Positions 34,805-50,511 of a DNA stretch of 64,000 nucleotides are shown piece by piece. The position numbers were made by a program, and so were the translations under genes. The notes under the pieces are model-generated. The model was given only the letters and a program-made list of their open reading frames with translations. It did not search any database and was not told where the DNA came from. Source of the stretch: an uncultured Litoreibacter sp. Its GTDB lineage: Bacteria > Pseudomonadota > Alphaproteobacteria > Rhodobacterales > Rhodobacteraceae. Each line of letters begins with the position of its first letter. Positions within the stretch are counted from its first letter, which is position 1. Location of the stretch: the NCBI RefSeq assembly GCF_947487515.1, contig NZ_CANKWO010000003.1:62001-126000 (forward strand). Direction: 5' to 3'.

Positions 34805-35752
34805 ATGGCATTGAACCTACCCACCCCGACCTCACCCTTGCGGATTGGCACCCGCGGATCACCGCTTGCTTTGGCGCAGGCCTATGAGACGCGCGCGCGA
34901 CTGATGGCGGCCTTCGATTTGCCAGAAGACGCCTTTGAGGTAGTGGTGATCAAGACAACCGGTGACGCGGTTCTGGACCGCCCGCTGAAAGAGATCGGCG
35001 GCAAGGGATTATTCACCCGCGAGATCGAGGATGATCTGCTGGCGGGCAAAATCGACATTGCCGTCCATTCGATGAAAGACATGCCAGTAGAGCAGCCACA
35101 GGGCTTGTTGCTGGACACCTATTTGCCGCGTGAAGACGTGCGCGATGCCTTCGTGTCATTGAAGGCAAAGGGCATAGCAGAATTGGCCGAAGGCGAGACC
35201 GTGGGGACATCCTCCTTGCGCCGCCGCGCGCAGATTTTGCACCGTCGCCCTGACCTGAATGTCGTCGAATTCCGTGGCAATGTGCAAACGCGCCTGAAGA
35301 AGCTGGATGCGGGGGTGGCGACTTGCACCTTCCTTGCGATGGCGGGTTTGAACCGGCTGGCCATGGACGATGTGCCTGCCACAGGGATCGAGACGTCGGA
35401 TATGCTGCCTGCCGTGGCGCAGGGCGCTATCGGGATTGAGCGCCGCGTCGATGACAGACGCGTGGCAGAGATGCTGTCGGCGATCCATCACACACCTACG
35501 GGTCAACGGCTGGCCTGCGAACGCGCCTATCTGGCGCAACTCGAAGGCTCTTGCGAGACACCGATTGCGGGCTTGGCAGAGCTTGAGGGCGGCACGGTAA
35601 AGTTCCGAGCCGAAATTTTGCGCCCCGACGGGTCTGAGGCATTGAGCGATGCGGAGACGTCTTCTATCGAAGATGCTGCCGAGATGGGCCGCGCTGTTGC
35701 CGACCGGCTAACCGCCCGCGCGCCTGAGAACTTCTTTGACTGGCGGAGCTGA
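34805..35752 (+). CDS. hemC: Hydroxymethylbilane synthase (porphobilinogen deaminase)
   Basis: This 315-residue enzyme joins four porphobilinogens into hydroxymethylbilane. Substrate-binding motifs RIGTRGSPLALAQA, SMKDMPVEQP, GTSSLRRRAQ and EFRGNVQTRL are present, and the dipyrromethane-cofactor cysteine sits in LEGSCETPIAG. ATG 34805 is used; upstream in-frame codons lack support. The last 75 codons, including the cofactor cysteine, are duplicated 14,662 bp downstream, after the phn cluster. The gene is intact, but its 3' end may derive from the inserted DNA. Confidence 0.96.
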   Translation: MALNLPTPTSPLRIGTRGSPLALAQAYETRARLMAAFDLPEDAFEVVVIKTTGDAVLDRPLKEIGGKGLFTREIEDDLLAGKIDIAVHSMKDMPVEQPQGLLLDTYLPREDVRDAFVSLKAKGIAELAEGETVGTSSLRRRAQILHRRPDLNVVEFRGNVQTRLKKLDAGVATCTFLAMAGLNRLAMDDVPATGIETSDMLPAVAQGAIGIERRVDDRRVAEMLSAIHHTPTGQRLACERAYLAQLEGSCETPIAGLAELEGGTVKFRAEILRPDGSEALSDAETSSIEDAAEMGRAVADRLTARAPENFFDWRS

Positions 35753-35778
35753 ACTGCGAGTGGTCTAGCTTAAATGTC
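35524..35778 (+). repeat. Left direct repeat (hemC 3' end) bounding the phn cluster
   Basis: This is the first copy of a segment of about 255 bp that recurs at 50186-50440 in the same orientation with a constant offset of 14,662 and no gaps. It covers the last 75 codons of hemC and 26 bp after the stop, ending at TTAAATGTC. I count 13 mismatches in all. The two flanks diverge fully outside it. Confidence 0.92.
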
Positions 35779-36085
35779 TGGGTCGAGCCCATAGAAGAAA
35801 TGTTGGAATCATGCTGCATGCGCACGCAGCCTTAGAGCTGCCGCACGTGCGCGGTTTATTGCGCTGAGTGGCGGCGGAGATAGCTGCTATTCGGCCTTGG
35901 TGCACAGAAACTTTGGTTGGCGAGGATCAAGTCGCGGGACGGAGATGCTATTCACTGCGGCTGCGCCGATTACCGCTTTGCAGCTAGGGCGCGCAAACAT
36001 CACTGACGAAAACTACGAACGGATCACGGCCCTCAGCCAAACACCTGCCCCTGCAACAGACCGCCTTGAGGAGACATAGCCGCGT
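35779..36085. other. Gene-poor stretch at the left edge of the phn cluster
   Basis: These 307 bp follow the hemC repeat. The only open frame is a 60-codon + frame at 35897-36079 (ending PAPATDRLEET), in which codon use looks plausible, but it lacks a convincing ribosome site and I recognise no family. It may be the tail of a gene cut by the insertion, or non-coding. Confidence 0.4.
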
Positions 36086-36379
36086 TTATGCTGGTGCGGG
36101 TGTCAACTCTTCCCAGTGTTCGCCCATTGCAATAATGCAGGACGTCCCGTTGGTGTAGGTCTGAACCAAGGTCCAATCCTGCGTTCGGGGGTCAATCCAG
36201 ACCTCAAGCACCGTCTCGGGCCCGCGCAGACCAAGGGCGCGGCGTTCGGATTGCATCACAGTGGTGAGCATCCGTTCCAAGCGCGCGCTGTCATCGCAAG
36301 TTACGTCCGCCGTTTGCGCCTGTGCCGCAACGGGCAAGGTCAAGAACGCCGCCAGAATTGTGAAAATATAGCGTGTCAT
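36086..36379 (-). CDS. Small secreted protein of unknown function
   Basis: The 97-residue protein has a clear signal peptide (MTRYIFTILAAFLTLPVAAQA, about 1-21). The mature part has two cysteines (VTCDD, SCIIAMGE) and a segment VLEVWIDPRTQDWTLVQTYT that looks like a small beta sheet. Similar short secreted proteins with a C-terminal CIIAxG motif are common in Rhodobacteraceae, without known function. It lies inside the repeat-bounded segment, divergent from phnC. Confidence 0.65.
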   Translation of the reverse strand: MTRYIFTILAAFLTLPVAAQAQTADVTCDDSARLERMLTTVMQSERRALGLRGPETVLEVWIDPRTQDWTLVQTYTNGTSCIIAMGEHWEELTPAPA

Positions 36380-36501
36380 GGGATCACATTAGCCGGAGGA
36401 GCTTTAATGTAACAAGTATATGACGAAATTGTCCCAGTGTGTGTTGCAACAGCGAATTTGTTGATCAATTTGAAGCCCTGCACTTTTCTGCGACGGGTTT
36501 A

Positions 36502-36552
36502 TCGTCATGTAACCGTTAAGAAATCATCAAGAACCTGATTCAAAACTGTCAC
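36502..36552 (+). promoter_or_regulatory. Array of five Pho-box-like 7-mers upstream of phnC
   Basis: Five 7-mers are spaced exactly 11 bp apart: TCGTCAT (36502), CCGTTAA (36513), TCATCAA (36524), CTGATTC (36535) and CTGTCAC (36546). The last two, separated by AAAA, fit the PhoB consensus CTGTCAT-N4-CTGTCAT best. The array ends 52 bp before the phnC ATG, so PhoB would recruit RNA polymerase to phnC under phosphate limitation. Confidence 0.65.
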
Positions 36553-36604
36553 CCAAGTGTTGAATTGCGGGCTTAATCACTCCGAGAACGCTTCGGGGGA
36601 TGAC

Positions 36605-37420
36605 ATGTTAAGCATTAGCGGACTAACCAAACGGTTTGGCGACAAGGTCGCCGTAGACGCAGCCAATATCCAGATTGATGCCCCCGCAATGATTGGCATC
36701 ATCGGGCGATCAGGTGCTGGCAAATCGACGCTGTTGCGGATGCTTAACCGGCTCAGCGATGTATCGAGCGGGCAAATCCTGTTTGAGGGCGAAGACGTGA
36801 CGGCGGTGCGCGGTGCCGCGCGGCGCCATTGGCAGTCGCGTTGCGCAATGATCTTCCAGCAATTCAACCTAGTGCCGCGGATGGATGTGGTGTCGAATGT
36901 GTTGCACGGCACGTTGAACCGCCGCTCAACGCTGGCGACGATGTTCAACCTTTATCCTCAGTCCGACATTCACAAAGCCATCGATATTCTGGACCGGCTT
37001 GGCATCGCAGAACAGGCGCCGAAACGCGCTGAAGCTTTGTCAGGTGGCCAACAACAGCGCGTCGCGATTGCACGCGCGCTGATGCAGGACCCCGCAATTA
37101 TTCTGGCGGATGAGCCAATTGCATCGCTTGATCCAATGAATGCGCAGGTCGTAATGCAATCCCTGCGCGACATTCACGAAGAAGATGGCCGCATGGTCAT
37201 CGCGAACCTGCACACCTTGGATACCGCAAGGCGTTACTGTGACCGCGTGATTGGTATGCGTGATGGACGCATCGTCTTCGACGGGGCGCCCGCACAGCTC
37301 ACAACCGGTGTTGCACGCGAAATATATGGGGCGGGCACGGATTTTTCCGAAGCTGCCACATCCACCGAAATCGAAACACTGGACAGAACCGAGCCCCCTA
37401 AAGTCGAGGCAGCCGCCTGA
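36605..37420 (+). CDS. phnC: Phosphonate ABC transporter ATPase
   Basis: The 271-residue ATPase has Walker [10 protein letters not shown], signature [15 protein letters not shown] and Walker [13 protein letters not shown]. PhnC-specific stretches include [21 protein letters not shown] 36605 is preceded by CGGGGGATGAC; an in-frame ATG at 36557 would fall close to the Pho array and is less likely. First gene of the phosphonate import operon phnCDE1E2. Confidence 0.95.
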
Positions 37421-37470
37421 GCCAGTTTACCTGCGCCAACAGGCGCTCAATTCCCTCCATGGAGACACTG

Positions 37471-38376
37471 ATGAAAAAGTTTATCGCTGCTACGTTGGCA
37501 ACTACGGCCCTTGCTGTTCCTGCCTTTGCGCAAGAAGTCACCGAATTTCGCATCGGCATTTTGGGCGGTGAAAACGCACAAGACCGCATGAACAACTATG
37601 CATGCATGCAAGAATATACGACTGAAGCGCTTGGTGTTGAAACAAAGCTGTTCGCGCCTGCCGATTATAATGGCGTTATCCAAGGCTTGCTGGGCGGCAC
37701 GATCGACATGGCATGGCTCGGCGCGTCCTCATATGCAGCGACATATCTGCAAAACCCAGAAGCTGTTGAGCCTGTGCTGGTCAAGCAGAACCTCGACGGC
37801 TCCATCGGTTACCATTCCATCGGGTTTGCCCGTGTGGACAGCGGCATCGAGAGCCTGGAAGGCGTTCAGGGCAAGGTCTTTGGCTTTGGTGATCCGAACT
37901 CTACATCCGGTTACCTGATCCCCTCTATCGAGATCCCGCAAACCACTGGCGCCACGATGGAATCTGGCGACTATTTCGGTGAAGTGAAATTCACTGGCGG
38001 CCATGAGCAAACGATCATTGCTGTGGCAAATGGTGACATCGACGCGGGCGTGACTTGGGCTGACGCTCAGGGCGAATGGGAAGATGGCTACAACTCCGGT
38101 GCGCTGCGCCGTGCGGTTGATGCGGGTCTGGTCGACATGAACGACCTTAAGCAGATCTGGATCTCCAACGTGATCCCTGAAGGTCCGGTTGTTCTGCGCG
38201 CCGACCTGCCAGCGGACGTCAAAGCGACAATGACCGAACTGGTCGACACACTTTATGAGCGCGATCAGGAATGTGCTTATGGCGTCGCTGCGGGTGATAC
38301 GCTTGGCTTTGTGCCGGTGACCCATAAAACATACGAAAGCATCGTTGCGGCCCGTCAGTCTGTGATTGGCAACTAA
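37471..38376 (+). CDS. phnD: Phosphonate ABC transporter, periplasmic binding protein
   Basis: The 301-residue protein has a signal peptide (MKKFIAATLATTALAVPAFA) and the PhnD core: FRIGILGGENAQDRMNNY, the loop with WLGASSYAATY, and the phosphonate-binding FGDPNSTSGYLIPS. GGAGACACTG precedes the ATG at 37471. It captures phosphonates such as 2-aminoethylphosphonate in the periplasm. A terminator-like hairpin follows, a usual way to make more binding protein than permease. Confidence 0.95.
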   Translation: MKKFIAATLATTALAVPAFAQEVTEFRIGILGGENAQDRMNNYACMQEYTTEALGVETKLFAPADYNGVIQGLLGGTIDMAWLGASSYAATYLQNPEAVEPVLVKQNLDGSIGYHSIGFARVDSGIESLEGVQGKVFGFGDPNSTSGYLIPSIEIPQTTGATMESGDYFGEVKFTGGHEQTIIAVANGDIDAGVTWADAQGEWEDGYNSGALRRAVDAGLVDMNDLKQIWISNVIPEGPVVLRADLPADVKATMTELVDTLYERDQECAYGVAAGDTLGFVPVTHKTYESIVAARQSVIGN

Positions 38377-38393
38377 GATAATTTCATGACAAC

Positions 38394-38429
38394 ACCGGTC
38401 GCTTCGGATGCGGGGCGGCCGGTATTTTT
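38394..38429 (+). terminator. Terminator-like attenuator between phnD and phnE
   Basis: ACCGGTCGC (38394-38402) pairs with GCGGCCGGT (38415-38423), 9 bp with one G-U, followed by ATTTTT. It sits 17 bp after the phnD stop and ends 13 bp before my phnE start. It would stop a share of transcripts after phnCD. Its presence argues against the earlier phnE start at 38386. Confidence 0.72.
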
Positions 38430-38442
38430 GTGCGGGGAAACC

Positions 38443-39315
38443 ATGACAGCAACAAACACGGGCCGCGCGCTAAACGTCGGTGACATTCGCGAAAGCTATC
38501 TCGCACAGGTCGGGCGGCGCAGGCTATACAGCGGCTTGGCGCTACTGATCTTCGTGGTCTTGATGGTGTCCGGCTTTAACGTGGCCGATGAGCGCAATGC
38601 TGGCGGGTTCTGGGAGGGGTTGCACCAAATCGGCGACTACCCCAGCGAAGTTCTTGCTGAAGCATGGGAAAAGCGCGCCGACCTGCCAAGCCTGATTGCC
38701 AAGTTTTTTCCGGCCCTTGTCGAGACGATCAATATCGCGGCGATGTCGACGATCATCGGCGCAGTTGCTGGCTTGATCCTGTCTCTATTGGGGACGCGGG
38801 GCCTTGCGAAATGGCCCCTCTTGATCCCGCTGTTTCGCCGGTTTTCTGACATTCTGCGCGCGATCCCCGAGATCGTGATCGCGCTGGTTCTGATCTTCGT
38901 TTTGGGCGGCGGCCCCGTGCCCGCGATGATCGCAATTGCACTGCACACCGCTGGTGCGCTGGCCAAAATGTTTTCCGAGGTTGCTGAAAACGCCGACCTC
39001 AAGCCTGTTGAAGGGCTGGCCTCAACGGGGGCCACATGGACACAGCGGATGTTGCTGGGCGTGTTGCCGCAGGTCGCGCCAAACTACGTCAGCTACACGC
39101 TGCTTCGGTTTGAAATCAACATTCGCGCCTCAGCGATCCTTGGCTTTGTCGGTGCGGGCGGCCTTGGCTACGAGCTGCGCAATGCGATGGCATGGGGGCC
39201 GGGTCGGTTCGATGAGGCCGCCGCGATATTTGTGCTGCTGTTCGGCACGATCGTGTTCTTTGACCAAGCCTCAAGCCGCTACCGCAATCGTTTGACTGAA
39301 GGACAGGCCCAATGA
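38443..39315 (+). CDS. phnE: Phosphonate ABC transporter permease 1
   Basis: The 290-residue inner-membrane permease has spans at about 30-50, 105-130, 145-175 and near the C terminus, and the EAA loop VEGLASTGATWTQRMLLG. The PhnE motif INIRASAILGFVGAGGLGYEL is intact. ATG 38443 has GGGGAAACC just upstream; the frame can start at 38386, but a hairpin lies there. It overlaps phnE2 by 4 bp (ATGA). Confidence 0.92.
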   Translation: MTATNTGRALNVGDIRESYLAQVGRRRLYSGLALLIFVVLMVSGFNVADERNAGGFWEGLHQIGDYPSEVLAEAWEKRADLPSLIAKFFPALVETINIAAMSTIIGAVAGLILSLLGTRGLAKWPLLIPLFRRFSDILRAIPEIVIALVLIFVLGGGPVPAMIAIALHTAGALAKMFSEVAENADLKPVEGLASTGATWTQRMLLGVLPQVAPNYVSYTLLRFEINIRASAILGFVGAGGLGYELRNAMAWGPGRFDEAAAIFVLLFGTIVFFDQASSRYRNRLTEGQAQ

Positions 39316-40628
39316 GCTCTGTAGATATTCAAGCCACTAAGACGCATGCGGAAGGTCTGTTTCGCCGTAAACGGCTGTTCGCCTTTGGTGTGCCTGCGGT
39401 GATCCTTGCCTATTTCACCTACATCTTCTTTGCGTTTGATTTGCCCAGCTTGCTCCAACGCGCCAACATGGAAAATGCGCGCACGCTGACCTCCGACATC
39501 TGGTCCCACAAGGTTCATGTTACCCGCGACAACCGGAACGGCGAAATCTCTTATGCTGTGGAGGGCGAGCGCAAGGGCGCATACCCCGTCGGCGCGCGCC
39601 CCGATTGGGTCAGCGGCACGGATGTGATCACGGTTGATCTGGGCGCAGACACGATTGTGCGTTTTTTGCCCGACAACCGAACAGAAGTGGATATCGCGGG
39701 TTTTGGACTGATCGCCGCACAGGCGGAGGGCCGGAAGGTTTCCACCAATCTGCCCGCTGATCTGCCTGACTGGATTAACGCCTCAGATCGCCGTGTCGCG
39801 ATCACCACGCCCGAGGGTCGGATCACGCTTACGGGGTCCAAGACCGAAGTCTTCAATTATTTCGCAGGGTGGGAGCTGTTTTGGTTCACGCTCGACAGCC
39901 CTTATCACGGGGTGGGTTTCAGTCAGGTGCTGTTTGGCGACCAGATTGATCCTGACCGTGGTAACATTAGCGGCGCGATGTCGGACTTTTGGAACAATAA
40001 AATGTGGCGGCACAAAGATGTTGCTTGGGCCATCGGTGAGACGATCCTGATGGCGTTCCTCGGGACTATGGGGGCTGCGATGATCGCGCTGCCACTGGCG
40101 TTCATGGCCGCAAAACGGTTCACCCCAATCGTGTTGTTGCGTGCTGCCACGCGTCGCCTGTTTGATTTCGTGCGCGGCGTGGATGCGCTGATCTGGACGG
40201 TGGTTCTTGCCCGTGCGTTTGGTCCAGGGCCTTTGACGGGTGCGTTGGCCATTTTAATCACCGACACGGGAACATTCGGTAAGACGTTCTCTGAGGCGCT
40301 TGAAAACGTCGAGGACAAACAGATCGAAGGCGTGACGTCGACGGGGGCAAAACCTCTGCAACGGTATCGGTTCGGGGTGATCCCGCAGGTTGTTCCGGTG
40401 CTGTTGGCGCAGGTCCTCTATTTCCTTGAATCCAATACCCGCTCCGCGACGATCATCGGCGCGATCACAGGCGGTGGCATCGGGTTAATGTTGACGCAAG
40501 CGATCCAAACCCAAAAAGACTGGGAAGAAGTCGCTTATTACATCATCCTGATTATTGTGATGGTCATGCTGATGGATTGGCTGTCGGGCTGGCTGCGCGG
40601 CAAGTTGATCGGAAACAAAGACGGATGA
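39312..40628 (+). CDS. phnE2: Phosphonate ABC transporter permease 2, with a long periplasmic insert
   Basis: The 438-residue permease carries the same PhnE core in its C-terminal half (EGVTSTGAKPLQRYRFG; SNTRSATIIGAITGGGIGLML). Between the first span (about 24-45) and the second (about 240) is an insert of about 180 residues with beta-strand character (ITVDLGADTIVRFLPDN, RVAITTPEGRITLTGS). It is probably periplasmic. It would pair with PhnE1 in a heterodimeric channel. Confidence 0.9.
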   Translation: MSSVDIQATKTHAEGLFRRKRLFAFGVPAVILAYFTYIFFAFDLPSLLQRANMENARTLTSDIWSHKVHVTRDNRNGEISYAVEGERKGAYPVGARPDWVSGTDVITVDLGADTIVRFLPDNRTEVDIAGFGLIAAQAEGRKVSTNLPADLPDWINASDRRVAITTPEGRITLTGSKTEVFNYFAGWELFWFTLDSPYHGVGFSQVLFGDQIDPDRGNISGAMSDFWNNKMWRHKDVAWAIGETILMAFLGTMGAAMIALPLAFMAAKRFTPIVLLRAATRRLFDFVRGVDALIWTVVLARAFGPGPLTGALAILITDTGTFGKTFSEALENVEDKQIEGVTSTGAKPLQRYRFGVIPQVVPVLLAQVLYFLESNTRSATIIGAITGGGIGLMLTQAIQTQKDWEEVAYYIILIIVMVMLMDWLSGWLRGKLIGNKDG

Positions 40629-41272
40629 CGACCTACCTGATTACAGGGGTGAACCGAGGCATCGGGGCGGCGCTGTTTGCCGAAGCCACCGCGCGCGGAC
40701 ATAGCGTCATTGGCACAACGCGCGATGGGCAGGACGGAACTGTGCCGCTTATCCTCGATGATCCGGCCAGTATTGCCGCGCAATTGGCAGATATCCCTCC
40801 GGTGGACGTGCTCATCAACAATGCAGGTGTCATTGGGCCAGAGGCGGAAAACCAAACGCCGTTGAACATGGATTGGGACGGCTTTGCCCATACCTTATCG
40901 GTCAACACAATGGCGCCTTTGGCAGTGGCCCAAGCGGTGCTGCAGCACATGCGCAAAAGTAGAGCGCCGAAGATACTGACCGTGTCGTCCCAGATGGCGT
41001 GGATGGGCTATCGCAAACCCACACAAATTGCCTACCGCGCCTCAAAATCCGCGCTGAACAAAGTAATGCAAGGCCTCGCCACTTCGCTGGAACCCGACGG
41101 GATCCCCGTTGTTCTTGTGGATCCGGGCTGGGTTCGCACGGACATGGGCGGGATGGACGCAGAAGAAGACCCAAAAGAGGTCGCGGCAGGCATCCTTGAT
41201 ATTTCCGCCGGACTGACCCTTGCCAAGACCGGCAAGTTCTTCCGATTTTCCGGCGAAGAAAGAGAGTTCTGA
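40625..41272 (+). CDS. Short-chain dehydrogenase/reductase in the phn operon
   Basis: The 215-residue enzyme starts [18 protein letters not shown] with the SDR nucleotide motif TGxxxGIG, then NNAG (INNAGVIG) and the catalytic Y-x3-K ([11 protein letters not shown]). The start ATG overlaps the phnE2 stop (ATGA). It oxidises or reduces a carbonyl or alcohol with NAD(P). Its substrate is unknown; position suggests a step before or after C-P cleavage. Confidence 0.85.
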
Positions 41273-41274
41273 TC

Positions 41275-41892
41275 ATGCCAAGACTAAATGCTGACGACCC
41301 TTTCATTCACCCCGATTGCGATGTCATCGACAGCACCTTTGGTGCCTATGTCGAAATCGGGCGGGGCAGCAGGCTGAACAACGTGACGTTCGGGGATTAC
41401 TCCTACTGCGACCGCTATGCCGACATCGCCAACGCTCGGGTTGGAAAATTCGCTAACATCGCCGCATTCAGCCGGATCGGTGCCACGGACCATCCGCTCG
41501 ACACTGCCGCTTGCCACCATTTCCTCTACCGCTCAGCCGATTACTGGGATGATACGACTCGCGATGAGGCGTTCTTTGCCCATCGCCAGTCCCGTATCGC
41601 CCACATTGGTCACGACACATGGATTGGTGCAGGTGCCATGATCAAGCCCGAAGTCACATTGGGGCACGGCGCAGTCGTGGCCGCAGGGGCCGTGGTCACA
41701 AAGGACGTCGATCCCTACACAATCGTCGCGGGCACGCCGGCCAAACCTCTGCGGCTGCGTCAGCCGCGTGCGATCGCGGATCGCCTGATAGCGCTGGCGT
41801 GGTGGGATTGGGATCATGAGACAATACGTGTGGCATTGGACGACTTTCGCGCAATGAAGGCCGATGCGTTCTTGGAAAAATACGAAGGCTAG
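41275..41892 (+). CDS. Phosphonate-operon transferase with hexapeptide repeats
   Basis: The 205-residue protein has the left-handed beta-helix repeats of acyltransferases ([16 protein letters not shown], then [20 protein letters not shown]), as in chloramphenicol/Vat-type acetyltransferases. Members of this family are frequent in alphaproteobacterial phn operons. It could acetylate aminoalkylphosphonates, like PhnO in enterobacteria but with an unrelated fold. Starts 2 bp after the SDR stop. Confidence 0.85.
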
Positions 41893-41920
41893 CCGCGTTG
41901 CCTCTTACCTTGGGGCCGTT

Positions 41921-42640
41921 TTAGTTTTCCAAGGTGAGTGTGATCCGATCCCCGACAAACCACGTGCGTCCGTATTCCACGGGATTGCCCGTCTGATCGA
42001 CATTCACCCCCGAGGAGCGTAGCAGCGGGTCACCCTCATTGACTTGCAAATGCAGGGCATGTGTCGCACCCGCGCGCACCGCCGTCAGCCGCGTAGACGC
42101 GCGCGTGTAATCTGCCACACCGACAGTGGCCAAAGCCTCCGTCACACTGCCCTGCGCGTCAAAGGCGGCTGATATTCCCGGGGTCCGCGCCAATGGAAAG
42201 ACGCTTTCGAACACCGCGATGGGCTGACCATCGGCCAAGGATAGCCCGTGGTAGGAACAGACCTGATCACCCGCGTTGATGGCGAGCGCCTGCGCTTCGC
42301 CGTCGGTTGCAAACCGGTCTTCGACCAACAGCACGCGTTTTTCGGGCAATCGCCCTGCCGCGATCAGATTGTCGTGGAACCTGACTTTGCGCCCGATGGG
42401 ATAGTCGGTCGGCGTCGAGGCCACAAAAGCTCCTGCGCCGCGCCGAGTGCGGATGAGCCCTTCTTCCACCAACGCAGAAATCCCATGGCGCACGGTGTGA
42501 CGGTTGACGCCAAACCGTTCAGCCAAAGCCGCCTCGGTCGGGAGCTTGTCGCCGGGGGCATAGCGGCCCTCGGCCAGATCACTGCGCACGGCTTGCGCGA
42601 TGGCCTGCCAGATCGGTGTCTTGGGGGAAGTGTCACGCAA
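41921..42640 (-). CDS. phnF: GntR/HutC-family regulator PhnF
   Basis: The 239-residue repressor has an N-terminal winged helix (GDKLPTEAALAERFGVNRHT, then VRHGISALVEEGLI) and a C-terminal UTRA domain (SYHGLSLADGQPIAVFESVF). It is divergent from phnG over 81 bp and convergent with the import genes. PhnF of mycobacteria and enterobacteria represses phosphonate or phosphate uptake genes; here it likely controls phnG onward. Confidence 0.9.
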   Translation of the reverse strand: MRDTSPKTPIWQAIAQAVRSDLAEGRYAPGDKLPTEAALAERFGVNRHTVRHGISALVEEGLIRTRRGAGAFVASTPTDYPIGRKVRFHDNLIAAGRLPEKRVLLVEDRFATDGEAQALAINAGDQVCSYHGLSLADGQPIAVFESVFPLARTPGISAAFDAQGSVTEALATVGVADYTRASTRLTAVRAGATHALHLQVNEGDPLLRSSGVNVDQTGNPVEYGRTWFVGDRITLTLEN

Positions 42641-42684
42641 AATTCACAAATCTCCGCTGGGGGAATCGAAGGGACATGTTATTA

Positions 42685-42703
42685 TGTGTCTAGTTGTATA
42701 GGA
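42685..42703. promoter_or_regulatory. Possible PhnF operator in the phnF-phnG gap
   Basis: TGTGTCTAGTTGTATAGGA contains GTCTAG, the core of HutC-type GntR sites (GTNTANAC), with an imperfect right half. It lies 19-37 bp upstream of phnG and 45-63 bp upstream of phnF, where one dimer could control both. No Pho box is seen in this gap. Confidence 0.35.
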
Positions 42704-42721
42704 TATCGAAAAGTTGTCGAG

Positions 42722-43177: not shown

Positions 43178-43755
43178 TGCAGGCCCAAACTCTCAGCGGC
43201 GGCTTCGCGGACACCGCCACCGCCTCTGCGGTCGCGTTTCGTCAGGTGATGGAAGCAATGGCGCGGCCCGGTACGATCCACATGGTCACAGGTGCCGCCC
43301 CGCCAGCGCCTCTTTCCCCCGCGACGGGCGTTGTACTGCTCACCCTATGCGATCCAGACACCCCCGTGCATCTGTCAGGCGCGCTAGACTGCGATGCGGT
43401 GCGAACTTGGATCGCATTTCACACGGGCGCGCCGGTTGTTGGGCCGTCTCATTGCGTGTTTGCGGTGGGGGGCTGGGACGATCTGACGCCGCTCAGTGCA
43501 TATCAAATCGGTACACCCCAATACCCTGACCGCTCTGCCACGCTGATCGTTCAGGTTGATCAGTTGGAGCCGAATGGGGCCATTTTGTCCGGCCCGGGCA
43601 TCAAAGACACGCACAGCTTGTCGCTGCCTGAGACCCGCGCGTTTCAACTGAATGCTGGGCATTTTCCCTTTGGCCTTGATTTCATCTTCACGTGCGGCGA
43701 TCGCGTAGCGGCCCTACCGCGCACCACAGTCGTTATGCACAAAGGAGCGGTCTGA
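43177..43755 (+). CDS. phnH: C-P lyase core complex subunit PhnH
   Basis: The 192-residue subunit begins MQAQTLSGGFADTATASAVAFRQVMEAM, where PhnH has the FxxxFRxxMxAMARPG motif, here MEAMARPGTIH. LSLPETRAFQLNAGHFPFGLD near the end is also typical. It has a PLP-transferase-like fold without PLP and dimerises inside the core complex. One-base overlaps (TGATG) couple it to phnG and phnI. Confidence 0.95.
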   Translation: MQAQTLSGGFADTATASAVAFRQVMEAMARPGTIHMVTGAAPPAPLSPATGVVLLTLCDPDTPVHLSGALDCDAVRTWIAFHTGAPVVGPSHCVFAVGGWDDLTPLSAYQIGTPQYPDRSATLIVQVDQLEPNGAILSGPGIKDTHSLSLPETRAFQLNAGHFPFGLDFIFTCGDRVAALPRTTVVMHKGAV

Positions 43756-44843
43756 TGTATGTGGCCGTCAAAGGTGGAGAGCGGGCGATTGAGAACGCAC
43801 ACGCATGGCTTGCCGAAGAACGCCGCGGGGATACCTCCGTTGCCGAACTCGGGGTGGCACAAATCCGCGAACAGCTGGCATTGGCCGTTAATCGCGTCAT
43901 GGCCGAAGGGTCGCTTTATGACCCTGATCTTGCAGCACTTGCGATCAAACAGGCGCGCGGCGATCTGATTGAGGCGATTTTCCTGATCCGAGCCTACCGC
44001 ACCACGCTACCCCGTTTTGGTGCATCCTTGCCCGTCGATACGGGCAAAATGGCCTGCGACCGGCGCATCTCGGCCACGTTCAAAGACCTGCCCGGTGGAC
44101 AGGTTCTAGGGCCAACATTTGATTACACGCACCGTCTGCTTGATTTCAAACTGGCCGCCGACGGAGAGGCGCCAAAGGCCGCAACACGAGAGGCTGTGCA
44201 CGGCGACGTCCCCCATGTGACCGACTTCCTTAACCACGAAGGGTTGATCGAAGAGGCCGTTCACGATGACACGACACCACCAGACCTAACCCGCGAACCG
44301 CTGGAAATGCCCGCGGAGCGCGCGCTGCGCCTGCAGGCCCTCACCCGCGCGGACGAAGGGTTCACGCTTGGCATGGCCTATTCCACCCAGCGTGGCTATG
44401 CGCGCAACCACGCCTTTGTCGGCGAATTGCGCATTGGTGCCGTGCCTGTCGAAATGGACATCCCCGAGCTGGGGTTCAGCGTTGAGATTGGCGAGGTCAC
44501 CTTGACCGAATGCGAAACCGTCAATCAGTTCACCGGATCAAAGTCTGAACCGCCCCAGTTCACCCGTGGCTACGGGTTGGTCTTCGGCCAAACCGAACGC
44601 AAGGCGATTTCAATGGCACTGGTCGATCGGGCGCTACGTTGGGAAGAACTGGGTGAGGACAACGAAGGCGCCCCTGCGCAAGACGCTGAATTTGTGCTCT
44701 ATCATGCGGACAACATTCAGGCGACGGGGTTCCTAGAGCACATCAAATTGCCCCATTACGTTGATTTTCAAGCTGAATTGGAACTGGTGCGCAAACTGCG
44801 TGAAGAGGCAGGTGCAAACAGAGTGCCTGAGGCCGCAGAATGA
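43755..44843 (+). CDS. phnI: Alpha-D-ribose 1-methylphosphonate 5-triphosphate synthase subunit PhnI
   Basis: The 362-residue subunit starts MYVAVKGGERAIENAHAWLA and has the strongly conserved FLIRAYRTTLPRFG and YSTQRGYARNHAFVGELRIG. PhnI, with PhnG, H and L, displaces adenine from ATP to give ribose-phosphonate triphosphate. Start ATG overlaps the phnH stop by 1 bp. Unlike E. coli, a HAD gene is inserted between phnI and phnJ. Confidence 0.95.
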   Translation: MYVAVKGGERAIENAHAWLAEERRGDTSVAELGVAQIREQLALAVNRVMAEGSLYDPDLAALAIKQARGDLIEAIFLIRAYRTTLPRFGASLPVDTGKMACDRRISATFKDLPGGQVLGPTFDYTHRLLDFKLAADGEAPKAATREAVHGDVPHVTDFLNHEGLIEEAVHDDTTPPDLTREPLEMPAERALRLQALTRADEGFTLGMAYSTQRGYARNHAFVGELRIGAVPVEMDIPELGFSVEIGEVTLTECETVNQFTGSKSEPPQFTRGYGLVFGQTERKAISMALVDRALRWEELGEDNEGAPAQDAEFVLYHADNIQATGFLEHIKLPHYVDFQAELELVRKLREEAGANRVPEAAE

Positions 44844-45439
44844 CCCCCGATATTGTAGTTTTTGACATCGGCGGCGTGCTGATCGACTGGCAGCCGCATT
44901 TGGCTTGGGCCGATGAGATGGACGCGGCTGAAGCGCAGGCTTTCATGGATCGGATCGCCTTCGACAAGTTGAACCTTGCCTGTGATGCGGGGGCGACATT
45001 TGCGTTGGCTGCCTCCCTGATTTCGGACCCAAAAGATGCCGCGCGGCTCGGTCGATATGTTGAGCGGTATCAGCACACAGTTCCCGCCAAGATCACCGGC
45101 ACTTGGGATATTCTATATGCCTTGAAAGCCGCCGGAACACCTGTGCATGCAATCACCAACTGGTCGGCTGAAACATGGCCCGAAGGCTGCAAAGCGCATC
45201 CCGAGCTGTTGGAGGTCTTCGACACGACGGTGGTCTCGGGTGAGGTTGGCGTCATCAAGCCCTCAACCGAAATCTATGCCCTTTTGTGCCACCGCGCAGA
45301 TGTAGCACCCGAGCGGTGCGTGTTCATCGACGACGGGTTGCACAACTGCTTGGGCGCACGGGCGGCTGGCATGGACGCGATCCATTTCAAAGGTCCCGAC
45401 GCCTTGCGCAAAGACCTCTCAGCACGGAGCCTGTTATGA
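44840..45439 (+). CDS. HAD-superfamily phosphatase inside the phn operon
   Basis: The 199-residue HAD-IA type protein has motif I FDIGGVLIDW (nucleophile Asp; the usual second Asp is Gly, as in YihX-type sugar-phosphate phosphatases), motif II ITNWSAE, the Lys of motif III (GVIKPS) and motif IV FIDDGLHN. It overlaps phnI and phnJ by 4 bp each, so it is a true member of the operon. It may dephosphorylate a ribosyl intermediate; this is inference. Confidence 0.85.
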   Translation: MTPDIVVFDIGGVLIDWQPHLAWADEMDAAEAQAFMDRIAFDKLNLACDAGATFALAASLISDPKDAARLGRYVERYQHTVPAKITGTWDILYALKAAGTPVHAITNWSAETWPEGCKAHPELLEVFDTTVVSGEVGVIKPSTEIYALLCHRADVAPERCVFIDDGLHNCLGARAAGMDAIHFKGPDALRKDLSARSLL

Positions 45440-46299
45440 GCGACTATAACTTTGCCTATCTGGACGAACAAACCAAACGCATGATCCGCCGCGCGATCCT
45501 CAAAGGGCTCGCCATTCCCGGTTATCAGGTGCCGTTTGCCAGCCGTGAAATGCCAATGCCCTATGGTTGGGGCACGGGCGGGGTGCAGGTGTCAGCGGCG
45601 GTGATGACGCCGGATGACCGGTTCAAAGTGATCGACCAAGGGGCGGACGACACGACCAATGCCGTATCCATCCGCACGTTCTTTGAGCGCACGGCGGGCG
45701 TTGCCACGACGACAAAAACCTCCCAAGCAAGCGTCATTCAGACCCGCCACCGCATCCCCGAAGAACCGCTCAGCGAGGGCCAGATTCTTGTCTACCAAGT
45801 ACCGATCCCCGAGCCTTTGCGTTTTCTGGAACCCCGCGAAAGTGAAACCCGCAAGATGCACAGCCTTGAAGAATACGGTCTTATGCATGTGAAGCTCTAC
45901 GAAGACATCAGCCGCCACGGCCATATCGCGACGTCATATGCTTATCCGGTCAAGGTCGAAGGGCGTTATGTCATGGACCCATCCCCGATCCCGAAATTCG
46001 ACAACCCCAAGCTTGGGGATATGGCGGCGATCCAGTTGTTTGGGGCAGGCCGTGAACAACGCATTTATGCGCTGCCGCCCTACACTCAGGTGGTGTCGCT
46101 TGATTTCGAAGACCACCCTTTTGAGGCCTCTAAGCCGGACCACCCTTGTGCCATGTGCGGGGCGGAAAACAGCTACCTCGACGAGGTAATCACCAACGAT
46201 GCGGGCGGGCGAATGTTCGTGTGTTCAGACACAGATTTCTGCGAGGCAAGACAGGCCGCAGGCCACACCGGCACGATGAACGGAAAGGACGCGGCATGA
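45436..46299 (+). CDS. phnJ: C-P lyase radical SAM enzyme PhnJ
   Basis: PhnJ (287 residues) breaks the C-P bond to give alkane and ribose 1,2-cyclic phosphate 5-phosphate. Four cysteines, C238, C241, C263 and C269 (CAMCG, FVCSDTDFCEAR), have the same spacing as the E. coli set and would bind the Fe-S cluster and form the catalytic thiyl. Other conserved parts are IRRAILKGLAIPGYQVPF and MPMPYGWGTGG. Starts at the ATGA overlap with the HAD gene. Confidence 0.97.
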   Translation: MSDYNFAYLDEQTKRMIRRAILKGLAIPGYQVPFASREMPMPYGWGTGGVQVSAAVMTPDDRFKVIDQGADDTTNAVSIRTFFERTAGVATTTKTSQASVIQTRHRIPEEPLSEGQILVYQVPIPEPLRFLEPRESETRKMHSLEEYGLMHVKLYEDISRHGHIATSYAYPVKVEGRYVMDPSPIPKFDNPKLGDMAAIQLFGAGREQRIYALPPYTQVVSLDFEDHPFEASKPDHPCAMCGAENSYLDEVITNDAGGRMFVCSDTDFCEARQAAGHTGTMNGKDAA

Positions 46300-47066
46300 C
46301 ACCTTTGCTTTCGGTCCAAGGGATCACAAAGTTTTACGGCCAGCATATCGGCTGCAAGGATGTGGCATTTGATCTTTACCCCGGTGAGGTCATGGGGATT
46401 GTCGGGGAAAGCGGGTCGGGAAAGTCCACTTTGCTCAACTGTATGGCGGGACATTTGACGCCTGATGCGGGTGCGGTTGTGTTCGATACGCGAACAGATG
46501 GCCCGCGCGATACTGTCACGATGTCCGAACCCGAACGCCGCATGTTGTCGCGGACCGATTGGGCTTTTGTGCATCAACACGCCCGTGACGGTTTGCGGAT
46601 GGGTGTCAGTGCGGGCGGCAATGTGGGCGAACGCCTGATGGCTGTGGGCGACCGTCACTACGGCGATATTCGCGCCAAGGCCACCGATTGGCTCGGCCGC
46701 GTTGAAATTGACGCTAACCGCGTCGATGATCGCCCCACGACGTTCTCCGGCGGGATGCAACAACGCCTTCAAATTGCCCGCAATTTGGTGACCGGGCCAA
46801 GGTTGGTGTTCATGGATGAACCCACAGGCGGGCTTGATGTATCCGTTCAGGCGCGGCTGCTTGATCTGTTGCGCGGATTGGTCCGCGATATGGGGCTATC
46901 CGCGATCATCGTCACCCACGACCTCGCCGTGGTGCGCCTGTTGGCGGACCGATTGATGGTCATGAAAGACGGCCATGTGGTGGAGGCAGGTCTGACAGAT
47001 CAAGTGCTGGATGATCCCCAGCACGCCTATAGCCAACTCCTCGTCAGTTCTGTTTTGCAGGTGTGA
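46296..47066 (+). CDS. phnK: C-P lyase ATPase subunit PhnK
   Basis: The 256-residue ABC-type ATPase has Walker [10 protein letters not shown], the PhnK-type FSGGMQQRLQIARNL and Walker B LVFMDEPTGGLDVS. It lacks a permease partner and instead binds the PhnGHIJ core through PhnJ. ATG 46296 overlaps the phnJ stop by 4 bp. The central YGDIRAKATDWLGRVEID agrees with PhnK. Confidence 0.95.
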   Translation: MTPLLSVQGITKFYGQHIGCKDVAFDLYPGEVMGIVGESGSGKSTLLNCMAGHLTPDAGAVVFDTRTDGPRDTVTMSEPERRMLSRTDWAFVHQHARDGLRMGVSAGGNVGERLMAVGDRHYGDIRAKATDWLGRVEIDANRVDDRPTTFSGGMQQRLQIARNLVTGPRLVFMDEPTGGLDVSVQARLLDLLRGLVRDMGLSAIIVTHDLAVVRLLADRLMVMKDGHVVEAGLTDQVLDDPQHAYSQLLVSSVLQV

Positions 47067-47068
47067 AA

Positions 47069-47752
47069 ATGATTGAACTTAGAAACGTGTCGAAGACCTT
47101 TACGCTGCACAATCAAAGCAGTGCGGTGATTGAGGTCATCAACGATGTGTCATTGTCCGTGGCGGCAGGCGAATGCGTGGCGCTGACTGGCGCATCAGGT
47201 GCCGGAAAATCGACGCTGATGCGGATGATCTACGGCAACTACCTGACGCAAGCCGGGCAAATCCTGATCGACGGTGTTGATTTGGTGCAGGCGGAGCCGC
47301 GCGACGTGATCACCTTGCGCCGCGAGACCCTTGGGTATGTCAGCCAATTCCTGCGGGTCGTGCCGCGCGTGCCAACGCTTGATGTCGTCGCCGAACCGCT
47401 GCGCGCCGTTGGGGTCAGCGCGACCAATGCGCGGGCCCGTGCCGAAGAATTGCTCGCGAAACTTAATATCCCAAAGCGGCTTTGGTCCCTGTCTCCCACA
47501 ACCTTTTCGGGGGGGGAGCAACAGCGCGTGAACATCGCGCGCGGCTTTGCCCACCCTTATCCGGCGATGTTGTTGGATGAGCCAACGGCAAGCCTTGATG
47601 CAGCCAATCGCGAGGTCGTGTTGTCGCTGATCGAAGACGCCAAAGCCCGAGGCGCGGCTATCATCGGCATCTTTCACGACGAAGCCGCCCGCGTCCGCGT
47701 CTGTGACCGCGAAATTGACGTGAGCCAATACACGCCCGGAATTGCGGCATGA
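47069..47752 (+). CDS. phnL: C-P lyase ATPase subunit PhnL
   Basis: The 227-residue ABC-type ATPase starts MIELRNVSKTFTLHNQSSAV, with Walker A GASGAGKST, the PhnL stretch VSQFLRVVPRVPTLDVVAEP, signature FSGGEQQRVNIARGF and the end GAAIIGIFHDEAAR. A GTG at 47063 is an alternative start and overlaps the phnK stop (GTGA). It takes part in the nucleosidase step with PhnI. Confidence 0.95.
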   Translation: MIELRNVSKTFTLHNQSSAVIEVINDVSLSVAAGECVALTGASGAGKSTLMRMIYGNYLTQAGQILIDGVDLVQAEPRDVITLRRETLGYVSQFLRVVPRVPTLDVVAEPLRAVGVSATNARARAEELLAKLNIPKRLWSLSPTTFSGGEQQRVNIARGFAHPYPAMLLDEPTASLDAANREVVLSLIEDAKARGAAIIGIFHDEAARVRVCDREIDVSQYTPGIAA

Positions 47753-48294
47753 AAAACGGACGCCTCATCGCTGTGGTCGGCCCGTCGGGTGTGGGCAAGG
47801 ACAGCGTCATGGAAGGGCTCGCCGCAGCCGATCCGACGTTGCAACTGGTGCGCCGCACGATTACCCGCGCGCCGGAACTGGGGGGCGAGGACTACGATGC
47901 CGTCACTGTGGCAGAGTTCGAAGACATGGCGGCGCATGGGCATTTTGCCGTTCACTGGGGTGCCCATGACTTGCACTATGGCATCCCCGCGTCGATCCAA
48001 ATTGCACTAGCCAATGGGCAAGATTGCCTCGCTAATTTTTCACGTTCAGCGCTTGAGGCCGGGGACGCGACCTTTGCCCATTTTTGTGTCCTCAATATCA
48101 CCGCACGGCCCGATACGCTTGCGACGCGTCTAGCGGCACGCGGTCGCGAAACTGGGGCCCAGATTGCAAAACGTTTGGCCCAAGCGGGCAAACCTTTGCC
48201 AACGGGGATGAACGTGCTGACAGTGAGCAACGATGGTGCGCTTGAGGACACCGTCGCAAATGCCCTGTCGCTGCTTCAACCCGTGAGGGTGTAG
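47749..48294 (+). CDS. phnN: Ribose 1,5-bisphosphate phosphokinase PhnN
   Basis: The 181-residue P-loop kinase has Walker A GPSGVGKDSV and the guanylate-kinase-like VRRTITRAPELGGEDYDAVT. It converts ribose 1,5-bisphosphate to PRPP, the last step that returns the sugar to metabolism. It overlaps phnL by 4 bp. Its 3' end overlaps the convergent 2H gene by 19 bp. Confidence 0.95.
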   Translation: MKNGRLIAVVGPSGVGKDSVMEGLAAADPTLQLVRRTITRAPELGGEDYDAVTVAEFEDMAAHGHFAVHWGAHDLHYGIPASIQIALANGQDCLANFSRSALEAGDATFAHFCVLNITARPDTLATRLAARGRETGAQIAKRLAQAGKPLPTGMNVLTVSNDGALEDTVANALSLLQPVRV

Positions 48295-48947
48295 CGTTGG
48301 ATGAGTTCAAACCGCCCATCGGGGCGCTCACCGCACAAGGCGATGCTGCTGATTTCATAGCGGTCCGCCAAGGGCGGCAGGTGTTCACGCGCTGTGTTCA
48401 TCCACGCGGCGCGATCCGCCTGTGCCAAACGTCCGCTCAGCGTCAGGTGAAACCGGAATTCCTCCATCACATAGGGGTAGCCCCAACGCTGCAACAGCGC
48501 CTCCTGTCGCGTGCTCAGACCGACGCTGCGACGTCGTTCCAATTCGGCCTCGGTGGCAGGAGAACGAAAGGCGTCAAGCTCCGTCACGCAGGCGCTTGCA
48601 ACCCGTTCCACCCCGCTCAGGTCACCCGTCGGGGTCAACGCCAAAAACCCGCCCAATGTCGTCAGCTGCAAACCACCGCTGATGGCAGGCGCGCAACGCC
48701 CCGCCAAATCCGCAGCCGCGGTCTGCAATTCGTCGACAGACCGACCCTGTGCCAGCTTGAACGGCGGCTTCAACGTCCCGTGAAAGCCGTACTTTCGCGG
48801 TGTCATCGTAATGTCATCCAAATCAGGCACATCTGCTGGACGAGGGGCGCTGCCTGTCCGCACATCCCAGCCCAGCCAAGTCGCCCCAAAGCCTGCCAAA
48901 GCGTCATCGATTGGCGCGTCATAAATTGCGAAACGAGTGTATGTCAT
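48276..48947 (-). CDS. Phosphonate-operon 2H phosphoesterase-like protein (DUF1045)
   Basis: The 223-residue protein has two H-x-T/S signatures, H56-G-T58 (KYGFHGTLKPPF) and H167-L-T169 (FRFHLTLSGR), the mark of 2H phosphoesterases that open cyclic phosphates. The family is known from phn operons, but its role is not settled. No phnP is present in this operon, so this enzyme may open 5-phosphoribosyl 1,2-cyclic phosphate. It is the only gene of the enzyme block on the minus strand, overlapping phnN by 19 bp. Confidence 0.85.
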   Translation of the reverse strand: MTYTRFAIYDAPIDDALAGFGATWLGWDVRTGSAPRPADVPDLDDITMTPRKYGFHGTLKPPFKLAQGRSVDELQTAAADLAGRCAPAISGGLQLTTLGGFLALTPTGDLSGVERVASACVTELDAFRSPATEAELERRRSVGLSTRQEALLQRWGYPYVMEEFRFHLTLSGRLAQADRAAWMNTAREHLPPLADRYEISSIALCGERPDGRFELIQRYTLTG

Positions 48948-48972
48948 GAATTATCCTCTTAGGTCTGCTGAT

Positions 48973-50139
48973 ATGGACCACTCAGATGACATTTCTATGT
49001 CAGACGACCTTTGCCTCGCCAATGCGCGTTTGGTCTTGCCGGATCAAGTTCTGACAGGATCCATCATCATTGAGCAAGGCGTGATCACCGAAATTGTCGA
49101 AGGGGATCATAAGCCAAGCGGTAGCTTGGACTGCGCAGGCGATATCGTCATGCCCGGATTGGTTGAGTTGCACACCGACAACCTCGAACGCCATATGGAA
49201 CCGCGCCCAGAAGTTGACTGGCCGCATTTGCCTGCGCTCATCGCCCATGATGCGGAACTGGCATCGGTCGGGATCACGACCGTGTTTGACGCCTTACGCG
49301 CGGGATCCATTCACTCCGGCAAAGGGCGCTACATCGATTACGCCCGCGCGGTTGCTGACGAGCTTTTGGCCGCGCGCGCCCAAGGTGTGTTCAAGATCAG
49401 TCATTTCCTGCACCTGCGCGCAGAGGTTTGCTCTGAAACCTTACTCGAAGAACTAGCCCGCTTCACGCCCGATGACCGTGTCGGCATTGTCAGCCTTATG
49501 GATCACACCCCCGGCCAGCGCCAGTTCCGCGACCTGACCGCCTTGCGCACCTATGTCGCAAAGAAACGTGGCATGGATGACAACGATTTCGCTGAACATG
49601 TGGCGAACCTGAAAAGGTTGCAGGCCCAGTTTGGCGACAAGCACGAGAAGGGGGCCGTGTTGGAGGCCAAGCGGCTGGGTGCGGTTCTGGCAAGCCATGA
49701 TGATACTACCCGCGATCACGTTGTCACTTCGCAAGAAAACGGTGTCGGATTCGCTGAATTCCCAACCACCTTCGAGGCCGCGTTAGCCTGCCGCGATCAT
49801 GGTATCGCCGTCATGATGGGCGCGCCAAACGTCATCCGTGGCGGATCCCATTCCGGTAACGTCGCCGCAATGGAGCTAGCGCAGGCTGATTTGCTGGATA
49901 TCCTGTCGTCTGACTATGTGCCTGGTGGGTTGTTGATGGCGGCTTTCCGCGTCGCCGAACTCTGGAACGATCTGCCACGCGCGATTGCGACAGTGACCCG
50001 CACACCCGCAATGGCGGCACGGTTGCCGGATAGGGGTAGCCTGCAAACAGGTCTGCGGGGCGATGTCTTGAGAGTCAAAAACAGTCAAGGCACCCCAGTC
50101 CTGCGCGGTGTGTGGGCCAAAGGCGCGCGCATCGCCTGA
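48973..50139 (+). CDS. phnM: RPnTP diphosphohydrolase PhnM
   Basis: The amidohydrolase-fold enzyme (388 residues) removes diphosphate from ribose-phosphonate triphosphate before PhnJ acts. Metal-site region LVELHTDNLERHMEPRP and the conserved SLMDHTPGQRQFR, GVGFAEFPTTFEAA and GAPNVIRGGSHSGNVAA are present. The start is uncertain: ATG at 48937, 48946, 48973 or 48997 are in frame; 48973 and 48997 fit homologous lengths. It lies 25 bp from the divergent 2H gene and 48 bp before the right hemC repeat. Confidence 0.94.
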   Translation: MDHSDDISMSDDLCLANARLVLPDQVLTGSIIIEQGVITEIVEGDHKPSGSLDCAGDIVMPGLVELHTDNLERHMEPRPEVDWPHLPALIAHDAELASVGITTVFDALRAGSIHSGKGRYIDYARAVADELLAARAQGVFKISHFLHLRAEVCSETLLEELARFTPDDRVGIVSLMDHTPGQRQFRDLTALRTYVAKKRGMDDNDFAEHVANLKRLQAQFGDKHEKGAVLEAKRLGAVLASHDDTTRDHVVTSQENGVGFAEFPTTFEAALACRDHGIAVMMGAPNVIRGGSHSGNVAAMELAQADLLDILSSDYVPGGLLMAAFRVAELWNDLPRAIATVTRTPAMAARLPDRGSLQTGLRGDVLRVKNSQGTPVLRGVWAKGARIA

Positions 50140-50185
50140 CACAAGAACAAAGATCCATCGAGACGGTCATCACTCAGGCCGCTAT

Positions 50186-50440
50186 CGTCTATCTGGCGCA
50201 ACTCGAAGGCTCTTGCGAGACACCGATTGCGGGCTTGGCAGAGCTTGAGGGCGGCACGGTAAAGTTCCGCGCCGAAATTTTGCGCCCCGACGGGTCCGAG
50301 GCATTGAGCGATGCGGAGACGTCTTCTATCGAGGACGCCGCAGAGATGGGCCGCGCTGTTGCCGACCGGCTAACCGCCCGCGCGCCTGAGAATTTCTTTG
50401 ACTGGCAGAGCTGAAGCGCGAGAGGTCTAGGTTAAATGTC
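50186..50440 (+). pseudogene. hemC: Right direct repeat: orphan hemC 3' end
   Basis: This is a second copy of the last 75 codons of hemC plus flanks. The 225-bp coding part differs from 35528-35752 at 8 positions, 7 synonymous and one Arg to Gln (FFDWQS). The reading frame is open to a TGA at 50414 but has no start of its own. The dipyrromethane cysteine (LEGSCETPIAG) is retained. With the left copy it brackets exactly the phn cluster, marking it as an insertion or single-crossover product. Confidence 0.93.
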
Positions 50441-50511
50441 CGCGTTTGAGTTCTGGCCCGAGTGGATGTCAGAATGCAGATTGCAGGAAGAGCGGGTAAT
50501 CGTACGGGGAC

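What the first reader, a model, noticed from the sequence alone, without database searches (positions are those of the whole stretch)
35524..50440. A 14.4-kb phosphonate cluster bracketed by duplicated hemC 3' ends
The last 75 codons of hemC and 26 bp beyond recur, gap-free and in the same orientation, exactly 14,662 bp later. Everything between is the phn cluster plus one small secreted gene and a gene-poor edge. In the 225 coding bases 8 differ and 7 of those are synonymous, so both copies evolved inside working hemC genes before meeting. That fits insertion of a circular or homologous segment carrying a donor hemC end, which keeps hemC intact. No integrase is seen in the window. hemC as a landing site for a metabolic island seems little noted.
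Basis: partly seen in the sequence, partly recalled or inferred. Interest (0 to 1): 0.85.

Follow-up and report, generated by a model that had tools for sequence, protein, structure and literature searches.

The report
Borrowed phosphonate genes beside doubled hemC end
A marine bacterium picked up a ready-made set of phosphonate-using genes from a distant relative, and the genes sit between two slightly different copies of the end of an essential gene, most likely a scar of ordinary DNA recombination and not of a dedicated mobile element.

Summary
The repeat is real: window 35524-35783 and 50186-50445, 94% identical, 14,662 bp apart. The genome belongs to the Litoreibacter group. The seven genus-mates nearest by HemC have one hemC and no PhnJ; six of them show the empty site, hemC followed after 0.5-1.9 kb by the rpmJ/tRNA-Val flank. 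The island body (36010-50139) matches genomes of two other genera at 82-88% DNA and 97% PhnJ, whose HemC is only 67-73% identical, so it was acquired. The two hemC ends are nearest to each other (3.6%, against at least 15% to seven genus-mates) but differ almost only synonymously (dS 0.14, dN 0.006). A copy free to decay should carry more replacements, so both ends probably diverged mostly inside working hemC genes. No tyrosine integrase lies in the window; among 394 family genomes no other orphan hemC end was recognised. Best reading: recombination inside hemC, plus an illegitimate or circle junction, joined a phn-carrying segment to a second hemC allele. Which side was the newcomer is unresolved. 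A clean but ordinary transfer scar; hemC is not shown to be a recurrent landing site.

The parts
34802..35752 (+). hemC, intact (porphobilinogen deaminase / hydroxymethylbilane synthase); its last 75 codons are copy A
   Evidence: one match in each of the 19 genus-mates that have it
35524..35783 (+). copy A of the direct repeat: hemC 3' end plus 31 bp
35784..36009 (.). left edge of the insert, origin unresolved: no better than shuffles against hemC-downstream DNA of 7 genus-mates; one 81-bp stretch (35813-35893) is 78% like an intergenic stretch of G010
36010..50139 (+). island body, foreign: 84-88% DNA identity to G352 (L087) over its length except for about 40629-41227 (SDR gene)
   Evidence: gene by gene
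36086..36379 (-). 97-aa secreted-type protein, no Pfam family; 90% identical in G352, 52% in G010
36605..37420 (+). phnC, ABC transporter ATPase (start chosen by eye; name recalled)
37459..38376 (+). phnD, phosphonate-binding protein
38386..40628 (+). two phnE permease genes (38386-39315, 39312-40628)
40577..41272 (+). short-chain dehydrogenase, no match in the G352 cluster and only a 35-aa match in G206
41275..41892 (+). hexapeptide acyltransferase (DapH-like) of the phn cluster
41921..42640 (-). phnF, GntR/UTRA regulator (gene name recalled)
42722..44843 (+). phnG, phnH, phnI (C-P lyase core)
   Evidence: the names G and H are recalled from gene order
44840..45439 (+). HAD-type hydrolase
45439..46299 (+). 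phnJ, C-P lyase
46296..48294 (+). phnK, phnL, phnN
48276..48947 (-). DUF1045 protein
48937..50139 (+). phnM; similarity to the foreign clusters stops at its stop codon (50139 in G352, 50142 in G206)
50140..50185 (.). 46-bp stretch at the right junction, not similar to hemC beyond chance
50186..50445 (+). copy B: orphan hemC 3' end (75 codons, includes the SCETP stretch) plus 31 bp
   Evidence: (PF03900, E 4e-12)
50512..51342 (-). 276-aa protein, no Pfam family, not found in 60 other genomes searched
51765..51839 (-). tRNA-Val(gac), with rpmJ (name recalled) beside it: right flank shared with the six nearest genus-mates

Best explanation
A complete phn (C-P lyase) block was acquired from outside the Litoreibacter group. 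It reached this genome on DNA that also carried a hemC 3' end from a closely related but distinct lineage. RecA-type homologous recombination inside hemC joined that end to the resident 5' part, so hemC stayed whole. The other end closed by an illegitimate junction, or the segment was a circle, which pushed the resident hemC 3' end 14.66 kb downstream, where it remains as a relic behind phnM. Shown: foreign body, empty site in relatives, two hemC alleles, no tyrosine integrase in the window. Inferred: the RecA route, the donor side, and linear versus circular form.
For: Empty site in G001-G006, no PhnJ in G001-G007. Island body 82-88% to two other genera, 97% PhnJ there but HemC 67-73%. In all 17 island genes that have a G352 match, G352 is closer than any of the six genus-mates that carry phn; in those six, phnJ and hemC lie on different draft contigs. 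A-B divergence: dS 0.141, dN 0.006, intergenic 6 of 31. If copy B had been free to decay over half of the divergence, 11-20 replacements are expected and at most 1 is seen (P about 2e-4 or less; with only 0.05 on the B branch P 0.002-0.027). First 81 bases identical: chance 0.004 if 14 differences fall uniformly, 0.035 if 8 coding differences fall on sites variable in relatives; expected if the exchange point lies to their right. A ComEC-type gene is present, weak evidence, since the same family also hit 10 of 14 control genomes, E. coli included. No PF00589 integrase in the window.
Against: No genome with phn directly behind hemC was found (by eye on the cut listings). Published homology-facilitated illegitimate recombination inserts and deletes about 1 kb on average (PMC3240628, introduction), whereas here about 14 kb was added and a stretch doubled. 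A single crossover of a circle gives doubling naturally but predicts differences in the left 81 bases too. No microhomology could be defined at the right junction. The 81-base argument was made after seeing the data. Gene conversion between the copies was not excluded.
Confidence: 0.5

Rival explanations
1. Mirror event: the phn block already sat downstream of this lineage's hemC (copy A), and the newcomer was phn-free DNA from a sister lineage, recombining homologously on the right (rpmJ side) and illegitimately behind phnM, bringing copy B and the 276-aa gene.
For: Gives the same final order with the same number of steps; the 276-aa gene right of copy B is found in none of the other 60 genomes searched; copy B carries the longer branch (0.029 against 0.008) and the only replacement.
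Against: Leaves the identical first 81 bases to chance or gene conversion and still needs an earlier entry of phn behind hemC.
Confidence: 0.2
2. Site-specific island: an integrase-bearing element used the hemC 3' end as attB and carried its own replacement end, as known for elements in other protein genes; the integrase was later lost.
For: Identity is strongest at the junction side of the repeat, where an att core would lie; the replacement end keeps hemC intact; a mostly synonymous difference is what a functional replacement end would show.
Against: No tyrosine integrase in the window (serine recombinases not searched); similarity to foreign phn clusters fills the insert to within 46 bp on the right and 226 bp on the left, leaving little room for a lost module; no other orphan hemC end recognised in 394 family genomes; none confirmed in viral contigs by a search for close relatives; six phage-collection hits, all under 60% identity, four of them annotated as porphobilinogen deaminase and two without annotation.
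Confidence: 0.15
3. Plain duplication of the hemC end in this lineage together with insertion of phn, both copies then diverging in place.
For: The two ends are nearest to each other.
Against: Copy B should then have lost constraint: 5.5-20 replacements expected, at most 1 seen; no stop or indel in 75 codons. Gene conversion between the copies could hide part of this.
Confidence: 0.1
4. phn is ancestral here and was lost in the relatives.
For: 6 other genomes of 21 in the genus have PhnJ.
Against: In those six phnJ lies on another draft contig than hemC, and for 17 of 18 island genes the closest of eight compared genomes is G352 or G206, of other genera; the 18th, the SDR gene, has only a 35-aa match, in G206.
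Confidence: 0.03

Closest known systems
Homology-facilitated illegitimate recombination (HFIR) in transformable bacteria (PMC3240628, abstract and introduction read; the original papers it cites not read)
   Same: one homologous end anchors, the other end joins illegitimately; no recombinase needed
   Different: known cases average 1 kb insertions with 1 kb deletions; here about 14 kb is added and a hemC end is doubled
Displaced effector/immunity gene ends in Vibrio T6SS clusters and rhs loci (PMC5361080, passages read)
   Same: incoming module anchored by homology pushes the old gene end downstream as an orphan; HFIR proposed by the authors
   Different: there a repeated process leaving arrays of immunity genes; here a single case with an apparently inert orphan
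Integrase islands in protein genes, e.g. RME in Vibrio recA (PMC4405046, passages read); SGI1 at trmE (PMC8409611, abstract start in a listing)
   Same: target function kept although an island sits in or at the gene; RME brings a divergent copy of its target
   Different: RME has an integrase, 9-bp inverted repeats, a complete extra recA and excises as a circle; here no integrase was found and only a gene end is doubled
Transformation-made merodiploids in pneumococcus (PMC3784515, abstract and model section read)
   Same: partly homologous donor DNA bridging sister chromatids can double recipient sequence
   Different: duplications of about 100-900 kb between resident repeats
Horizontally spread phn/C-P lyase clusters of marine Rhodobacteraceae (PMC6852614, passages read)
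   Same: same pathway, reported to be acquired largely by horizontal transfer
   Different: insertion point and hemC scar not described in the passages seen

Membership tests
Horizontally acquired C-P lyase (phn) cluster | complete phn core with transporter, intact frames | tested here: met
   (some gene names recalled)
Horizontally acquired C-P lyase (phn) cluster | absent from nearest relatives, nearest match outside the genus | tested here: met
Site-specific integrative island | integrase gene at one end | tested here: not met
   no PF00589 hit in the window; serine recombinases not searched, none seen by eye
Site-specific integrative island | same attachment site used in other genomes | tested here: not met
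   no other orphan hemC end recognised
Site-specific integrative island | excision as a circle with an intact empty site | not testable with these tools
   no reads or strains
Homology-facilitated illegitimate recombination | homologous anchor at one end | tested here: met
   hemC end, 96% in coding bases
Homology-facilitated illegitimate recombination | illegitimate junction with 3-10 bp microhomology at the other end | tested here: inconclusive
   donor sequence beyond phnM not known
Homology-facilitated illegitimate recombination | deletion of recipient DNA | tested here: inconclusive
   spacing to the rpmJ flank varies 0.5-1.9 kb between species, so a deletion cannot be judged

The most novel reading that the evidence does not exclude
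The hemC end acts as a carrier homology arm: an integrase-free metabolic island that travels between Litoreibacter-group strains by looping out and re-entering through its own hemC end, always leaving hemC intact.
Probability: 0.06. Interest if true: 0.6.

Novelty: new member of a known kind. Interest (0 to 1): 0.3.

Why it matters
It is a readable scar of how a whole nutrient pathway can enter a chromosome apparently without a mobile-element recombinase: foreign body, empty site in relatives and two alleles of an essential gene's end are all present. It also predicts that the 14.66 kb can be lost again by recombination between the two ends, leaving a working hemC. As a mechanism it adds a clear example to known recombination routes, not a new one.

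Tried and rejected
Tried without gain: similarity of the left edge 35753-36009 to hemC-downstream DNA of seven genus-mates (in each case at least 22 of 200 shuffles scored as high) and to the genus by DNA (one 81-bp match at 78% in G010 and short patches of about 80% elsewhere); hemC ends in viral contigs (none confirmed), phages (six weak hits) and plasmids (33 records, 21 of the 30 rows listed annotated hemC, gene lengths not checked); terminators and promoters at both hemC ends (none above chance). phnJ within 20 kb of hemC in G272 and G168 (found by eye on the listed places): there phnJ lies on the 5' side of hemC, 12 and 17 kb away, so not the same layout; rejected. Genomes with two PF03900 hits besides G000 (G102, G143, G259): both places lie in open frames of 313-407 aa, so I read them as full paralogues. 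Against a neat picture: the DNA search also gave two matches in nine other genomes (G085, G090, G143, G151, G172, G173, G190, G196, G309); their second places were not listed, and PF03900 finds only one place in eight of them, so short or decayed ends there are not excluded. Assembly artefact rejected: the copies differ at 15 sites and lie inside one 792-kb contig. The listings were cut by the tool. In one search some of the 80 loci hold less than 10 kb downstream, and the lengths printed there are only rough.

Papers: two searches were aimed at hemC as an island or attachment site; each returned one paper, unrelated by the passages read. The other searches were on mechanism, phn or Litoreibacter; one search found nothing, and the papers were seen in the listing only. 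Most subscription journals are not in that library.
Full report
What is there. The direct repeat exists as described: 35524-35783 and 50186-50445, 94% identical, 14,662 bp apart, and it is the only long repeat in the window. Copy A is the end of an intact hemC; copy B is an orphan of 75 codons plus 31 bp, recognised as the porphobilinogen deaminase C-terminal domain (E 4e-12 for the frame 50112-50414). The block of identity begins at 35527 with 81 identical bases; the other differences lie to the right.

Where it is. The window lies in G000, contig C3, 62001-126000. Three genus-mates share contig lengths with Litoreibacter halocynthiae, L. albidus and L. arenae records, so I call it the Litoreibacter group; the window's own record carries no name here.

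Is it an insertion? Of 21 genus genomes 20 have hemC, and only G000 has a second match. PhnJ is in 7 of 21, including G000, and in none of the seven nearest by HemC identity, G001-G007. Of 19 fetched hemC loci, seven (G001-G006 and G008) show hemC followed by DNA matching the window from about 51.45-51.6 kb on, 0.5-1.9 kb after the stop; twelve, G007 among them, show no such match in the DNA held. What lies in that gap differs between species: a LysR gene in G001, a SnoaL-type gene in G006, a CreA gene in G005, a 113-aa gene without a family in G004. In G000 a 276-aa gene with no Pfam family sits there, found in none of the other 60 genomes searched. The interval is thus a place of gene turnover in the group.

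Where the island comes from. PhnJ was found in 203 of 394 family genomes. The best matches, G352 and G206 (97%), belong to other genera. DNA similarity to G352 covers 36010-40628, 41228-41893 and 41912-50139 at 84-88%; to G206 36504-50142 with gaps at 82-85%. The 97-aa gene and the HAD gene are shared with G352 (90% each); the short-chain dehydrogenase at 40577-41272 is in neither, apart from a 35-aa match in G206. HemC of G352 and G206 is only 67% and 73% identical to ours, and their phn genes lie far from hemC, so the phn block moved between genera. With about 12% DNA difference G352 is not the direct source. None of the six genus-mates with phn reaches G352 in any of the 17 genes that G352 shares; the nearest approach is phnK of G010 (94% against 97%). 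No plasmid record covers most of the insert in a near (megablast) search (21 records, best 16%).

What the two hemC ends say. They differ at 3.6% of 222 coding bases; each is at least 15% from all seven genus-mates. By the Nei-Gojobori count dS is 0.141 and dN 0.006; right of the 81 identical bases dS is 0.235; after the stop 6 of 31 bases differ. If copy B had been free to decay during half of that divergence, 11-20 replacements would be expected against at most one seen (P about 2e-4 or less); with only 0.05 of divergence on the B branch the P values are 0.002-0.027. These calculations assume equal mutation at silent and replacement sites and no gene conversion between the copies. So the ends most likely diverged as parts of two working genes in two lineages, and copy B became an orphan recently. 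The tree puts most of the change on copy B (0.029 against 0.008); its branch supports are low (48-67 except one of 96), including 67 for the branch that sets the two copies apart from the relatives, so the grouping rests on the distances.

How it got there. Any account needs one exchange in hemC or its flank and one non-homologous closure. The identical first 81 bases would follow if both copies there descend from the same allele and the exchange lay further right; chance gives this at 0.004 (uniform) or 0.035 (variable sites only), tested after the fact. I prefer entry of a segment carrying hemC end A and phn (0.5), but the mirror event, in which copy B and its right flank are the newcomers, fits nearly as well (0.2). 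A site-specific element keeps 0.15: the pattern of identity is right for an att core, but there is no tyrosine integrase in the window, little room for a lost one, and no second case recognised. A ComEC-type gene is present, which allows but does not show DNA uptake; the family also hits 10 of 14 control genomes, E. coli among them.

Is hemC a landing site? PF03900 was found in 383 of 394 family genomes; four have two matches. Three of these (G102, G143, G259) have both in open frames of at least 313 aa, that is, probable complete paralogues; only G000 has an orphan end. A looser DNA search gave two matches in nine other genomes, whose second places were not listed; PF03900 finds a single place in eight of them. 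Among 80 named hemC loci none has a second end or PhnJ within the held flanks. So the idea of hemC as a landing site rests on one event.

Against what is known. Recombinase-free capture with a displaced gene end is described for T6SS and rhs loci, with homology-facilitated illegitimate recombination as the proposed route (PMC5361080, passages). That process inserts and deletes about 1 kb on average (PMC3240628, introduction). An integrase island with a divergent copy of its target gene is known in recA (PMC4405046, passages). Spread of C-P lyase by horizontal transfer is reported (PMC6852614, passages). I therefore rate this a new member of a known kind, well documented but not surprising.

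Noticed in passing
window 50414-51510 and the same interval in L032-L037: The hemC to rpmJ/tRNA-Val interval carries different genes in different species of the group (LysR, SnoaL-type, CreA, unassigned), a small spot of gene turnover.
   Followed up: partly
window 50112-50414: Copy B is in frame with upstream codons, giving a 100-aa open frame that overlaps the end of phnM in another frame and holds the SCETP stretch (cofactor cysteine, recalled); probably chance, but it could be co-transcribed with phn.
   Followed up: no
window 40577-41272: Short-chain dehydrogenase gene inside the phn cluster that the G352 cluster lacks and G206 matches over 35 aa only.
   Followed up: partly
L087 12190-13404 and 18911-19864: The G352 cluster has an extra 404-aa gene, by eye a glycerophosphodiester phosphodiesterase (recalled, not searched), between the DapH-type gene and phnF, and an ArsJ-like transporter (recalled, not searched) beside the cluster.
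   Followed up: no
L211 (G352 hemC): The hemC match of G352 is reported with one in-frame TAG; may be an edge effect or a sequence error.
   Followed up: no
window 36024-36077 and 35813-35893: Short intergenic stretches with 78-83% matches elsewhere in the group (own C3:571222, G014, G005; G010), perhaps dispersed intergenic elements.
   Followed up: partly
window 56190-56231 and 56352-56393: A 42-bp direct repeat at 90% identity.
   Followed up: no
G008 C3 and C12: G008 has two PhnJ matches, the second only 48% identical to ours.
   Followed up: no
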